Shown here piece by piece: positions 12,928 through 59,902 of a DNA stretch of 64,000 nt; position 1 is the stretch's first letter, and each line of letters starts with the position of its first letter. Origin of the DNA: Sutcliffiella horikoshii (lineage in GTDB: Bacteria; Bacillota; Bacilli; Bacillales; Bacillaceae_I); contig KV440964.1 in the NCBI GenBank assembly GCA_001636495.1, positions 512,666-576,665 of the forward strand. Direction: 5' to 3'. Position numbers and translations under genes: made by a program. The notes beneath the pieces are model-generated. The model did no database searches, was not told the DNA's origin, and saw only the letters and a list, made by a program, of their open reading frames with translations.

Positions 12928-13050
12928 CGTTCCTTTCCGCTGCAGGCACTCGCTTTCCGCGGGGCGCTGCTTGAGCCTCCTCACTCCGTTGCGGGGTCTC
13001 AACCTACCGCTACCTCCCGCAGGAGTCGAGTGCCTTCCGCTCCAATCCAC
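12928..13050 (-). repeat. 125-bp covarying palindromic repeat, copy 1
   Basis: Between dnaX and the SRP RNA terminator, in minus orientation. Shares the core GAGACCCCGCAACGGAGTG...GGAGGCTC with six other copies in the window. Its middle helix is GGCACTCG pairing with CGAGTGCC, unlike any other copy but still complementary. The outermost arms pair poorly here, so this may be a decaying copy. Confidence 0.85.
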
Positions 13051-13084
13051 TTATTTGTTTAGCATTTGATCTTTAAATACATGA

Positions 13085-13115
13085 AAAAACCCACCCTAGA
13101 GACTAGAGTGGGTTG
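13085..13115 (-). terminator. SRP RNA terminator
   Basis: Minus strand hairpin AACCCACTCTAG...CTAGGGTGGGTT with six T, 16 nt after the SRP RNA. Confidence 0.9.
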
Positions 13116-13130
13116 ATTACTTTTATTTAA

Positions 13131-13400
13131 CTGCCGTGCACCTTCCGTCGATTAGTCACCATAAGCGTTACTCAAGCAGTTAGCTCGACCCAGGCAACCC
13201 TGCGGCACATGAGAGAGTCCGCTTAATGCTGCTTCCTTCCGGACCTGACATGGTTCACGGGTTCCCATTGCGCAGGACCCAGGTGTCAACACCACTTACT
13301 TGAGGCAGACCCTACAGCCTACTAACCTCGAGAAGGGATTCAGCCTCGCTAGAGCGGATTGCGAGTACAGGGCACCGCTACCTCCCCGCTTAGCACGACA
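13131..13400 (-). ncRNA. scr: Signal recognition particle RNA, long Bacillus type (scRNA)
   Basis: About 270 nt. The minus strand contains the SRP helix-8 core GTCAGGTCCGGAAGGAAGCA and the Alu-domain block GGGGAGGTAGCGGTGCCCTG near the 5' end, with complementary ends (GTCGTGCT near the 5' end, GGTGCACGGCA at the 3' end). The long form with an Alu domain is typical of Bacillus. It forms the signal recognition particle with Ffh. A sigma-A promoter lies about 50 nt upstream, so the primary transcript is longer and is trimmed, as in B. subtilis. Ends are approximate by a few bases. Confidence 0.95.
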
Positions 13401-13447
13401 AAATTAAAACCATAAGTTGGTTACGTCAATAACTCGACGCATAATTT

Positions 13448-13476
13448 AGTATAAAGGGTAATGGTCAAAAAAGCAA
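13448..13476 (-). promoter_or_regulatory. Promoter of the SRP RNA gene
   Basis: Minus strand TTGCTT (13476-13471), 17-nt spacer, TATACT (13453-13448). The only convincing promoter between tadA and the RNA. Confidence 0.65.
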
Positions 13477-13496
13477 CCATCTACACCTGTAAATAT

Positions 13497-13985
13497 TTAG
13501 GTGGCGTCACTGGACTGTTGCTTCTTTTCTTTCTTTTCCTGGCGAAGCTTCCGAAAAAAAGAAGATAAGAGCTCACCGCACTCCTCTGCTAGTACCCCGC
13601 TCACAACTTCCGTCTGATGATTGAACCTTTCATCCTGTAAGAGGTTCATCAGTGTACCAGCACAACCCGCTTTCGGATCTATTGCACCGTATACCACTTT
13701 CTTCACCCGTGACTGGATGATGGCTCCTGCACACATAGGGCAAGGCTCCAATGTCACATAGAGGATTGCATCTTCCAGACGCCATGTTTTCAAAGATTCA
13801 CACGCTTTATCGATAACAAGTATCTCTGCATGCGTAATGGACCGCTGTGTCGTCTCTCTTAGGTTATAGCCGCTTGCAATCACCTTCCCATCTAGGACAA
13901 GTACAGCCCCGATTGGAACTTCTTTTAACGCTTCGGCCTTTTTTGCCTCTTCGATTGCGAGCTTCATGAAATGTTCATCCTGCAT
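13497..13985 (-). CDS. tadA: tRNA-specific adenosine deaminase TadA
   Basis: Deaminates A34 to inosine in the anticodon of tRNA-Arg(ACG), allowing it to read CGU, CGC and CGA. A 162-residue cytidine/adenosine deaminase fold: HAE (H52, catalytic E54) and PCPMC (C82, C85) hold the zinc. The C-terminus is charged. Lies upstream of the SRP RNA gene, the same order as B. subtilis. Divergent from yaaI across 81 bp. Confidence 0.96.
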   Translation of the reverse strand: MQDEHFMKLAIEEAKKAEALKEVPIGAVLVLDGKVIASGYNLRETTQRSITHAEILVIDKACESLKTWRLEDAILYVTLEPCPMCAGAIIQSRVKKVVYGAIDPKAGCAGTLMNLLQDERFNHQTEVVSGVLAEECGELLSSFFRKLRQEKKEKKQQSSDAT

Positions 13986-14066
13986 ATATTAATTTCCTTT
14001 CCTTAATTACCTGGTTTATATTCTCGACCTCTTATCCATAGACTAACCCTTATGAGGTGATAAAAC

Positions 14067-14612
14067 ATGATGGAGCATTCCGCTTTACTTATTATAGATA
14101 TTATCAATGATTTTCAATTTAAGCACGGAAAAGCTTTAGCGGAGAAAACCGTAACAATCTGCCCGAATATCGTGAAGATCAAGGAGATGATGCTAAAAAA
14201 GGAACGTCCAGTCATCTATATTAATGATCATTATAACCTATGGCAGGCCGACTACGATAAAATCATGAAGAAATGCCGCAACTCTCTTAGTGCACCAATT
14301 ATTGAAGCACTCTACCCTACTGATCAGGATTATTTTCTGATAAAGCCGAAGCATTCCGCCTTTTTCGGTACAGCCCTACATACGCTGCTCTCACAGCTGA
14401 AGGTGAAAAATCTTGTCCTTTCCGGGATTGCCGGAAACATTTGTGTATTGTTTACAGCAAACGATGCGTATATGCGCGAGTTTGGACTCTTTATACCTAA
14501 CGATGCCATTGCATCTGCAGATGAACAGGACAATACGTATGCCTTGCGGATGATGGAAAATGTCCTCAAAGCCGATGTACGTCCTACCGAAAAGTTACTA
14601 GCTGACACTTGA
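14067..14612 (+). CDS. yaaI: Isochorismatase-family cysteine hydrolase (YaaI)
   Basis: A 181-residue hydrolase of the isochorismatase/nicotinamidase superfamily. The catalytic triad can be seen as D11 (IIDIINDF), a lysine in KPKH (K93 or K95) and C126 (GNICVLFTANDAYMR). The substrate is not known for this subgroup; nicotinamidase activity is possible but not shown by the sequence. The ATG at 14067 follows GAGGTG. Plus strand, so against the replication fork. The yaaH promoter lies just downstream. Confidence 0.88.
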   Translation: MMEHSALLIIDIINDFQFKHGKALAEKTVTICPNIVKIKEMMLKKERPVIYINDHYNLWQADYDKIMKKCRNSLSAPIIEALYPTDQDYFLIKPKHSAFFGTALHTLLSQLKVKNLVLSGIAGNICVLFTANDAYMREFGLFIPNDAIASADEQDNTYALRMMENVLKADVRPTEKLLADT

Positions 14613-14619
14613 GTTTGTG

Positions 14620-14648
14620 GCATGAACCCTCTGCCTCCTTCATACATT
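14620..14648 (+). promoter_or_regulatory. Candidate sigma-E promoter of yaaH
   Basis: -35 GCATGAA (14620-14626), 14-nt spacer, -10 CATACATT (14641-14648), the latter a full match to the sigma-E -10 consensus CATACAHT. In B. subtilis yaaH is a mother-cell sigma-E gene. Confidence 0.6.
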
Positions 14649-14679
14649 GATAAAGGATACTGAATAGGAGGGACGAACC

Positions 14680-58365: not shown

Positions 58366-58406
58366 AAACGACTTCCCACCGTTTTGAAGGAGACTCATAG
58401 GACATG

Positions 58407-58435
58407 TTGCAAAAAATCGGCCCCTCTGGTATAAT
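58407..58435 (+). promoter_or_regulatory. Promoter of rpsF-ssbA-rpsR
   Basis: TTGCAA (58407-58412), 17-nt spacer, TATAAT (58430-58435). Leader of about 75 nt to rpsF. Confidence 0.85.
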
Positions 58436-58469
58436 CTTAATTTGTGAGTAATGATTATTTATAATTGAT

Positions 58470-58500
58470 TGCTCCTTGCCCACCAAGGGCCGCTTAGACC
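58470..58500 (+). promoter_or_regulatory. Candidate S6:S18 binding structure in the rpsF leader
   Basis: CCTTG-CCCAC-CAAGG forms a small hairpin followed by GCCGCTTAG, the CCG-bulge arrangement known from S6:S18-regulated rpsF leaders. Would let the S6:S18 complex repress its own operon. Based on pattern recognition of the loop and bulge only. Confidence 0.5.
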
Positions 58501-58517
58501 AAAAGGAGGTGACTGTG

Positions 58518-58808
58518 ATGAACAAGTACGAAATCATGTATATCATCCGTCCAAACATTGAGGAAGACGCTAAAAAAGCTCTTACAGAACGTTTCAATAC
58601 GATCCTAACTGACAACGGTGCAGATCTATCTGAATCAAAAGAGTGGGGTAAACGCCGCTTAGCATACGAAATCAATGATTTCCGCGACGGCTACTATATG
58701 TTAGTAAACGTAGCTGCTGAGCCAGCTGCTGTTCAAGAGTTTGATCGTCTTGCTAAAATCAGCGAAGACATCATCCGTCATATTGTTGTTAAAAAAGAAG
58801 TTAAATAA
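58518..58808 (+). CDS. rpsF: 30S ribosomal protein S6
   Basis: 96-residue small-subunit protein that pairs with S18 on the platform. [20 protein letters not shown] and [17 protein letters not shown] are the S6 signatures. AAAGGAGGTG lies 7 nt before the ATG. First gene of the rpsF-ssbA-rpsR operon. Confidence 0.98.
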
Positions 58809-58853
58809 TAGTTGTCCTCTTTATGGACGTCGTCTCAAGGAGGAGTGGTTCTG

Positions 58854-59375
58854 ATGTTAAATCGCGTAGTATTGGTAGGTCGCTTAACGAAAGACCCTGA
58901 ATTGCGCTATACCCCAAGTGGAGTGGCGGTTGCTACTTTTACATTGGCAGTCAATCGTACGTTCCAGAATCAGCAAGGCGAACGCGAAGCTGACTTCATC
59001 AACTGTGTTGTCTGGAGAAAACAAGCTGAAAACGCAGCAAACTTTCTGAAAAAGGGAAGCTTGGCTGGTGTGGATGGCAGAATGCAGACACGTAATTATG
59101 AAGGCCAAGATGGAAAACGTGTGTACGTAACGGAAGTAGTGGCAGAAGGTGTTCAGTTCTTGGAACCTAAGGGATCCGGCGGTTCTGGATCTGGAAATGC
59201 ATCTCGTCCTAATCCAAATCAAAATCAAGGCTATGGTTCATCACCTAACTTTGGGTATGATCAGAACCAACAGCGTAGCAATAACAACAACCAAGGTTAT
59301 ACTCGTGTTGATGACGACCCATTTAAGAATGATGGCCAACCAATTGATATATCCGACGACGACTTACCGTTCTAA
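58854..59375 (+). CDS. ssbA: Single-stranded DNA-binding protein SsbA
   Basis: Coats single-stranded DNA in replication and repair. 173 residues: OB fold (1-105, [21 protein letters not shown]), a Gly/Asn/Gln-rich linker, and the acidic tip DDDLPF that recruits partner proteins. The start at 58854 has AAGGAGGAG upstream. Between rpsF and rpsR. Confidence 0.98.
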
Positions 59376-59445
59376 TTCTAGAAGGTATCGTTTTATAAAA
59401 ATGGCTGTATAAGCCGAAAAATCTAAAAAAGAAGAGGTGAATAAA

Positions 59446-59685
59446 ATGGCAGGAGGACGCAGAGGTGGACGTAACAAACGTCGTAAGGTTTGTTATTTCA
59501 CAGCTAACGGTATCACTCATATCGATTACAAAGATACGGATGTATTGAAAAAGTTCGTTTCTGAGCGTGGTAAAATTTTACCTCGTCGTGTAACAGGAAC
59601 TAGCGCTAAATACCAACGTAAATTAACGATCGCGATCAAACGCGCTCGTCAAATGGCATTACTACCATACGTTTCTGGTGAGTAA
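59446..59685 (+). CDS. rpsR: 30S ribosomal protein S18
   Basis: 79-residue basic protein that binds S6. [21 protein letters not shown] and [13 protein letters not shown] are typical. A single cysteine is present, so this is not the four-cysteine zinc form. The ATG at 59446 has GAGGTG upstream. Confidence 0.98.
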
Positions 59686-59699
59686 TACAGCCGATTAAT

Positions 59700-59746
59700 A
59701 AAAAAGGAAGGCAGTGAGAGAATATCTTGCTGCCTTCCTTTTTGCT
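59700..59746 (+). terminator. rpsF operon terminator
   Basis: AAAAAGGAAGGCAG...CTGCCTTCCTTTTT hairpin after rpsR. Confidence 0.93.
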
Positions 59747-59772
59747 AGCTTCTTAATAATCATAAAGTTCTA

Positions 59773-59902
59773 CCCTGTAGATTGGAGTGCAAGGTGTGAG
59801 ACTCCTGAGGGAGATAGCGGTAGCTTGAGACCCCGCAGCGAAGCGAGGAGGCTCAAGCACCGCCCCTAGGAAAGCGAACACCTGGAACGGAAATCTACAG
59901 GG
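59773..59902 (+). repeat. 125-bp covarying palindromic repeat, copy 7
   Basis: Between rpsR and yybS. Outer arms CCCTGTAGATT / AATCTACAGGG, middle arms AGGTGT / ACACCT, inner arms GCGGTAGCTTGAG / CTCAAGCACCGC, apical CGC / GCG. Confidence 0.9.

What the first reader, a model, noticed from the sequence alone, without database searches (positions are those of the whole stretch)
12928..59902. Seven copies of a ~125-bp intergenic palindrome whose helices covary
Copies at 12928, 17502, 19307, 19494, 43471, 51036 and 59773 share a core (GAGACCCCGCAACG...GTGAGGAGGCTC), but their arms differ by matched changes. Outer pairs: GTTGAT/ATCAAC, GTCGAT/ATCGAC, GTAGAT/ATCTAC. Middle pairs: GGCACTCG/CGAGTGCC, AGGTGC/GCACCT, AGGTGT/ACACCT, AGGAGT/ACTCCT, GGGC/GCCC. 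Inner pairs: TTGAG/CTCAA, GTGAG/CTCAC, CGGAG/CTCCG, GGGAG/CTCCC; GCGGT/ACCGC versus GCGAC/GTCGC. Such compensatory change means selection keeps the fold, not the sequence. No transposase is in the window. It could be a structured RNA, a hairpin mobilised in trans, or a nucleoid-protein site.
Basis: seen in the sequence. Interest (0 to 1): 0.8.

Follow-up and report, generated by a model that had tools for sequence, protein, structure and literature searches.

The report
Bacillales-wide paired long-hairpin repeat
The window holds seven copies of a 127-base hairpin that is scattered in the hundreds through genomes of Bacillus-like bacteria; it looks like an old mobile element whose folded shape is still being kept at long-held places, probably because it acts in the RNA copied across it.

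Summary
All seven copies are real, two on the minus strand. The family has at least 198 copies in this Sutcliffiella genome. A model of the seven hits 35 of 41 related genomes, but 3 of 299 drawn across the phylum under a tight cap. Pairing covaries beyond chance: 376 two-sided cells against 96 shuffled; on a tree, 82 compensatory double changes against 0-3 with slid partners.

New here: (1) two hairpin types, A and B; close neighbours are divergent in 32 of 34 cases, never convergent, and 31 of those 32 are A+B. (2) Lone copies between codirectional genes are 82 sense to 17 antisense; other named genomes 22 to 7. (3) About half of lone sites are shared between congeners (63 of 128 comparisons); there the hairpin is better conserved than its flanks in 44 of 53. 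(4) G-T outnumbers A-C 34 to 6 on the GAGACCCC strand.

Best reading: an ancient, trans-mobilised, hairpin-ended MITE/BIME-like family, with long-held copies kept folded. Expression and enzyme unknown.

The parts
12925..13051 (-). hairpin copy between the SRP RNA gene (13134-13398, -) and dnaX (11138-12832, -); sense to both; type not assigned
   Evidence: orthologous copy in 2 of 3 congeners compared
17502..17629 (+). hairpin copy, type B, between a deoxynucleoside kinase gene (+) and a tRNA gene (17798-17887, -)
   Evidence: occupied in 1 of 3 congeners, empty in 2
19305..19431 (-). hairpin copy, type A; left half of an A+B pair, between the T-box leader (19671-19907, -) and serS (17983-19260, -), sense to serS
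   Evidence: absent in 3 of 3 congeners compared
19432..19496 (.). 65-bp spacer between the two 5' ends of the pair
19497..19621 (+). hairpin copy, type B; right half of the pair, antisense to serS
   Evidence: present in 3 of 3 congeners compared
43472..43597 (+). hairpin copy, type A, between an RNase P protein gene (rnpA) and a 60KD_IMP (YidC-type) gene
   Evidence: occupied in 5 of 5 congeners compared, with compensatory differences in place
51037..51161 (+). hairpin copy, type A, between a ParB-type gene and a ParA-type gene (noc-soj position, by inference)
   Evidence: occupied in 4 of 5 congeners compared, the fifth keeps only the 3' tail
59776..59902 (+). hairpin copy, type B, between rpsR (Ribosomal_S18, followed by a terminator-like hairpin) and a DUF2232 gene
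   Evidence: occupied in 4 of 4 congeners (one with an extra insert), empty in G001

Best explanation
An ancient family of non-coding, hairpin-ended interspersed elements of Bacillales. Each unit is a 127-nt stacked hairpin in one of two types, A and B. A and B join head to head over a short spacer into a composite of about 320 bp, as the two ends of a small non-autonomous transposon would (architecture shown; mobilisation inferred). The family spread in trans, by an enzyme not found here; about half of the lone sites compared between species of the genus are shared, the rest were gained or lost. At shared sites the fold is kept by compensatory substitution, on one particular strand. Lone copies lie mostly in the sense direction of flanking genes, so the likeliest present effect is at the RNA level: an intercistronic or UTR hairpin that shapes decay or processing of the transcript (inferred, no expression data).
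For: At least 198 unique copies. Covariation: 376 two-sided cells against 96 shuffled, 19-61 slid; 99 co-change branches, 82 of them Watson-Crick to Watson-Crick, against a null mean of 18 and maximum of 33 co-change branches in 300; mostly one isolated pair per branch. In place: 117 Watson-Crick to Watson-Crick double differences over 59 orthologous comparisons, against 12 with partners slid 2 columns, both directions pooled. Hairpin against flanks, same aligner, lone sites: 0.80 against 0.64 and 0.72, hairpin higher in 44 of 53. Shared sites: 63 of 128 unordered lone-site comparisons. Pairs: 52 divergent, 0 convergent, 10 same-direction over own, four congeners and named genomes, orthologues included; 31 of 32 own divergent pairs A+B. 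Sense bias 82:17 and 22:7. G-T 34 against A-C 6, in both fork directions. End motif TTTAACAGAGCC-like after 51 of 198 copies against 9 shuffled; two copies with both ends and a perfect 8-bp direct repeat.
Against: No cognate transposase identified; only PF01797 and PF01610 were sought. No autonomous copy: the one 1.5-kb B...A interval examined holds host genes. Target duplications: 2 of 16 copies with both ends, while shuffled partners give a mean of 0.66 and up to 3 at 7 of 8 or better; the left-end motif is near background, 38 against 26 shuffled. 65 of 128 lone-site comparisons are not shared. G-T is only 0.7% of pair cells, low for a classical RNA. Paired copies show no sense bias (26:26); the older copy in the serS leader is antisense. 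26 of 82 sense singles have a terminator-like site only upstream of the hairpin, against 11 of 82 on the reverse strand. Some 'empty' sites are deletion scars, so gain and loss are not separated.
Confidence: 0.47

Rival explanations
1. Purely selfish REPIN-like element. The folded single strand is needed only for transposition by a trans-acting (for example HUH) enzyme; resident copies are remnants, and the sense bias is selection against harmful insertions.
For: Inverted A+B architecture like REP doublets; strand asymmetry fits single-stranded DNA as well as RNA; about half of lone sites differ between congeners; compensatory changes are also reported for REPIN hairpins (PMC3116915, passages).
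Against: Copies are old: median pairwise identity 0.74 among A3 rows, 6 of 11,175 pairs at 0.97 or more once five duplicate rows are set aside. Shared copies stay paired in place and are better conserved than flanks. The one PF01797 gene of this genome lies among copies of another palindrome, GGGTCAGACCC, 88 exact copies. G023 and G029 have 21 and 16 hairpins and no PF01797 match.
Confidence: 0.29
2. Arms kept complementary without selection, by hairpin-templated template switching or gene conversion between copies.
For: Double changes outnumber G-T intermediates: 69 Watson-Crick to Watson-Crick against 31 to G-T over all branches. At 43472 a whole inner module differs between congeners.
Against: Several internal unpaired positions are conserved at about 100% (for example columns 9, 11, 27, 123, 124, 126, 143), whereas arm correction should erase mismatches; 48 of 57 branches with doubles change one pair only.
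Confidence: 0.1
3. A dedicated structured regulatory RNA (riboswitch- or leader-like class) dispersed to many genes.
For: Sense bias, covariation, a pair in the serS T-box leader region.
Against: Nine neighbouring window proteins scanned are unrelated to each other; 17 of 99 lone copies between codirectional genes are antisense; very low G-U; high copy number and two-ended composite are element-like.
Confidence: 0.07
4. A DNA site for a nucleoid or condensation protein.
For: Wide intergenic scatter and long palindrome.
Against: Strand-specific G-T over A-C and transcription-linked orientation; only a weak replication-direction bias, 86 of 150, p 0.09.
Confidence: 0.06

Closest known systems
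bcr1-bcr18 interspersed repeats of the Bacillus cereus group (PMC3446304, passages)
   Same: Intergenic, bcr1-3 MITE-like, often inside UTRs or operon gaps; bcr3 in a transcript went with slower decay in that study
   Different: bcr1 is called specific to the B. cereus group in a title cited there; the present family is spread over many Bacillales genera and has an A+B head-to-head rule. Sequences were not compared here.
BOX, RUP and SPRITE repeats of Streptococcus pneumoniae (PMC3049150, passages)
   Same: Small interspersed repeats predicted to fold if transcribed, slow present insertion, one BOX combined with T-box riboswitches
   Different: No A+B inverted pairing in the passages read; BOX is modular (boxA, boxB, boxC). 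Orientation is given there relative to the leading strand and by type of gene gap, not as sense against antisense.
REPIN / BIME with RAYT (PMC3116915, passages; BIME Y/Z types recalled)
   Same: Doublets of palindromes with compensatory changes, singlets seen as remnants, mobilisation in trans proposed
   Different: Unit of 127 nt against 20-40 bp for REPs (PMC3733652, abstract in listing); the Y1 transposase gene here goes with another repeat.
ERIC of enterobacteria (seen only as described in PMC3049150, passages; length recalled)
   Same: Repeat with orientation-dependent effect on mRNA
   Different: Unrelated host group; no sequence comparison made
Bhal-1 family of Bacillus halodurans, 74 bp, 36 copies (PMC2267715, passages)
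   Same: Stem-loop repeat family in a Bacillales genome; could overlap with the present family

Membership tests
Rfam family (any) | match at a curated covariance-model score | tested here: not met
   No hit on any copy at gathering score, whole window; up to E 5 on 12800-20000, which holds four of the seven copies, one weak hit on a copy (Flavivirus_DB, E 3.1), taken as chance
REPIN/REP with RAYT | RAYT gene flanked by the same repeat | tested here: not met
   The Y1 gene in L009 is flanked by GGGTCAGACCC palindromes, not by the hairpin
REPIN/REP with RAYT | inverted doublets of a palindromic repeat | tested here: met
   32 of 34 close neighbours divergent, none convergent; 31 of 32 A+B. 134 of 198 copies are single
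MITE (non-autonomous DDE transposon) | terminal inverted repeats | tested here: inconclusive
   GGCTCTGTTAAA/TTTAACAGAGCC recognisable at both ends in 16 of 255 copies; right end 51 against 9 shuffled, left end 38 against 26
MITE (non-autonomous DDE transposon) | target-site duplication | tested here: inconclusive
   Perfect 8-bp repeat in 2 of 16; control mean 0.66, maximum 3, at 7 of 8 or better
MITE (non-autonomous DDE transposon) | autonomous partner with the same ends | tested here: inconclusive
   Only ISL3 (PF01610) was tried: no match in this genome, and no matching ends in the 20 loci fetched from other genomes; other IS families not tested
ERIC | sequence kinship with enterobacterial ERIC | not tested
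   No comparison made
bcr1-bcr18 | sequence kinship with a bcr consensus | not tested
   Consensus sequences not at hand
integron attC site | RYYYAAC...GTTRRRY boxes (recalled) and cassette context | not tested
   By eye the ends read GTTGATT...AATCAAC, opposite in polarity to the recalled boxes

The most novel reading that the evidence does not exclude
A and B are the two recognition ends of an undescribed class of hairpin-ended mobile element handled as a folded single strand; its copies were taken over across Bacillales as strand-specific RNA signals placed between genes, so that selfish DNA became a genome-wide layer of transcript control.
Probability: 0.2. Interest if true: 0.85.

Novelty: new variant of a known kind. 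Interest (0 to 1): 0.57.

Why it matters
It is a very abundant intergenic feature of this genome (at least 198 copies), without an Rfam match at gathering score and without a description in the listings of the ten paper searches made, and copies held at the same place in several species still show compensatory change. It offers a testable case of repeats being domesticated at the RNA level in Gram-positive bacteria, and the A+B rule gives a handle on the unknown enzyme that spread it.

Tried and rejected
ISL3-type transposase as mobiliser: no match in this genome, ends elsewhere do not fit. RAYT as mobiliser: disfavoured, its own repeat is GGGTCAGACCC. Autonomous copy between 3474449(B,-) and 3476098(A,+): host genes only. 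Replication-direction bias: 86 of 150, p 0.09 for ter at 2.3-2.69 Mb; 88 of 150, p 0.04 for ter at 2.85 Mb; not relied on. R-scape-like G-test with APC and random branch placement: 2 of 41 pairs at E 0.05 or better, both in the structure; event counting was used instead. First gene calls (12) replaced by codon-scored ones (17). Carriage with one copy as query: none of 50,697 phage records, 4 of 72,556 plasmids; no exact core in viral contigs. Site sharing was first counted as 162 of 229; that counts both directions and lets a pair partner stand in for a copy, so recounts it: lone sites 110 of 175 directional, 63 of 128 with each shared comparison once. The ten paper searches gave no description of this repeat in what was listed; several lists were capped (for example 40 of 134, 20 of 193), and subscription papers are not held. 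A/B typing rests on a pattern in the 5' arm with the flank as fallback; 16 of 198 stayed untyped. In making the 198 set, cut-off partial hits were left out by hand and duplicates merged.
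Full report
WHAT IS THERE. The window carries seven copies of an imperfect palindrome of about 127 nt. Two are on the minus strand, and the copies at 19305 and 19497 face each other head to head over 65 bp. Their folding energies lie 2.4 to 7.1 sd below dinucleotide shuffles. No copy matches Rfam at its gathering score; a search up to E 5 of 12800-20000, which holds four of the seven, gave nothing credible on them.

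HOST AND COPY NUMBER. The exact 14-mer GAGACCCCGCAACG occurs 77 times in the genome and 0 times in the reversed control. Covariance model R1, from the seven copies, matched 150 of the 150 candidates that were scored, out of 536 first-look candidates, at E 8.5e-12 or better. Reading the stretches around them gave 198 unique copies, a lower bound.

DISTRIBUTION. Of 299 genomes drawn across the phylum 3 are hit: own, one of the same order, one of the same class; only 11 candidates per genome were scored there, under strict filters. Two of its rows bear other labels, a Gemmatimonadales MAG (L152) and Pseudomonas sp. ISL-84 (L177); neither gave an R1 match up to E 0.01. With one copy as query there is none in 50,697 phage records and 4 in 72,556 plasmids; no exact core is in the viral contigs.

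COVARIATION. On 145 distinct copies and 33 pairs, 95.3% of cells pair (shuffled 86.9%, slid 40-47%), 21 pairs change on both sides, and 376 cells are changed on both sides (shuffled 96, slid 19-61). Reconstructed on a FastTree tree, structure pairs change on the same branch 99 times, 82 times from one Watson-Crick pair to another; random placement gives a mean of 18 and a maximum of 33 co-changes in 300 trials, and slid partners 8-20 co-changes and 0-3 compensatory ones (41 pairs). For the 33 well-defined pairs there are 69 such double events; 48 of 57 branches carrying one change a single pair, 37 are of transversion type and 18 are A-T to T-A swaps or the reverse. A harsher R-scape-like statistic found only 2 of 41 pairs at E 0.05 or better, both in the structure. 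Several internal unpaired positions are almost invariant, which argues against arms being kept alike by simple template switching.

WHICH STRAND. In the 33 pairs, 4516 cells are Watson-Crick, 34 G-T, 6 A-C and 219 other, read on the GAGACCCC strand (145 copies). G-T exceeds A-C both with the fork (22:4) and against it (12:2), so one strand appears to be the folded one, as RNA or single-stranded DNA. The G-T share, 0.7%, is low for a typical RNA. Lone copies between two codirectional genes are 82 sense to 17 antisense (p 2e-11; 134 lone copies: 17 between convergent and 12 between divergent genes, 6 at edges or overlapping). In named genomes, mostly of other genera, it is 22 to 7 (p 0.008; 63 lone copies: 15 convergent, 3 divergent, 16 at edges, overlapping or far). 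Paired copies show none (26:26). Among the 82, 26 have a terminator-like site only upstream of the hairpin, 8 only downstream, 1 both and 47 neither; the reverse strand of the same sequences gives 11, 3, 0 and 68.

TWO TYPES AND A PAIRING RULE. Copies fall into types A and B by the 5' arm and flank: 103 B, 79 A, 16 untyped. Of 34 neighbours within 600 bp, 32 are divergent (5' ends facing), none convergent; 31 of the 32 are one A plus one B. Of the 31 spacers printed, about 23 by eye belong to two related families of about 63 and 89 bp, so they may share one origin; the others look unrelated and still obey the orientation rule. G011, from its 150 scored hits, gives 8 divergent and 2 same-direction; named genomes 7 and 2; three congeners 5 and 4; convergent 0 throughout. 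Orthologues among congeners are not independent. This is what two ends of a transposon, or a BIME/REPIN doublet, would look like.

MOBILITY AND INHERITANCE. Some copies carry GGCTCTGTTAAA about 30 bp before the hairpin and TTTAACAGAGCC just after it; the right motif is found after 51 of 198 copies against 9 shuffled, the left before 38 against 26. Two copies have a perfect 8-bp direct repeat outside both ends (own 1116068, and one in G015), out of 16 with both ends recognisable; shuffled partners reach 7 of 8 a mean of 0.66 and at most 3 times. This suggests, but does not show, cut-and-paste insertion. Across 224-240 kb of synteny in four species a first count gave 162 occupied, 67 empty and 2 without synteny, but it counts both directions and lets a pair partner stand for a copy. 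Recounted on lone sites, 110 of 175 directional comparisons are occupied, or 63 of 128 with each shared comparison once. Some empty sites are deletion scars. So roughly half of the lone sites are shared and the rest turned over.

CONSERVATION IN PLACE. At 59 orthologous pairs the hairpin is 80.9% identical by the model alignment, the flanks 65.9% and 74.1%, the hairpin higher in 51 (4 inverted cases left out). With one aligner for all and lone sites only, it is 79.6% against 64.1% and 71.8%, higher in 44 of 53 (p 5e-8). Double Watson-Crick differences number 117 against 12 with partners slid by 2 columns, both directions pooled. So the fold is maintained in place where sites are shared.

ENZYME. 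The genome has one PF01797 (Y1) gene, which I call RAYT-like; it sits among copies of another palindrome, GGGTCAGACCC (88 exact copies). G023 and G029 have 21 and 16 hairpins and no PF01797 match. PF01610 (ISL3) has no match in this genome. No other transposase family was sought; the enzyme remains unknown.

MECHANISM. Shown: a family of structured repeats with covariation, two types, divergent A+B pairing, sense bias, partial inheritance and in-place compensation. Inferred: spread in trans; present action through the RNA copied across lone sense copies, as a hairpin between or beside genes affecting decay or processing. Parallels in print: bcr repeats inside B. cereus transcripts, with bcr3 linked to slower decay (PMC3446304, passages); orientation-dependent cleavage attributed to ERIC, and BOX repeats in transcripts (PMC3049150, passages); compensatory changes in REPINs (PMC3116915, passages). 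The last shows that covariation alone does not prove an RNA role.

VERDICT. The family is of a known kind (small interspersed structured repeats), but its hairpin length, two-type divergent pairing, range over many Bacillales genera and in-place compensation make it a new variant, as far as the listings of the ten paper searches show. Confidence in the combined mechanism is 0.47.

Noticed in passing
L009 1318-2064 (G000:C1:823775-824104 region): A single PF01797 (RAYT-like) gene in a cluster of GGGTCAGACCC palindromes, 88 exact copies in the genome: apparently a REPIN/RAYT system in Sutcliffiella. All 16 genomes of the genus have at least one PF01797 match, in G005 only a broken fragment.
   Followed up: partly
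own 163772 and 1254477; L060 9588; L267 9066 and others: An extra segment of about 60-70 nt sits at one point of the hairpin, in 16 distinct instances (15 directly after GACTCCT, one degenerate), in both A and B copies: an optional module or a site-specific inserter.
   Followed up: partly
window 19305-19907: The A+B pair lies between the T-box leader and the serS start; three congeners have only the B copy there.
   Followed up: partly
L059/L060 (G012), site of window 51037: The hairpin is missing between short similar sequences and its 3' tail is left, consistent with slippage across a hairpin.
   Followed up: no
window 4248-9132 and 26387-31271: Two rRNA operons, both on the minus strand, with equal Rfam scores and spacing; the ORF at 40564-41913 (-), taken as dnaA by its place, would mark the origin side.
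   Followed up: no
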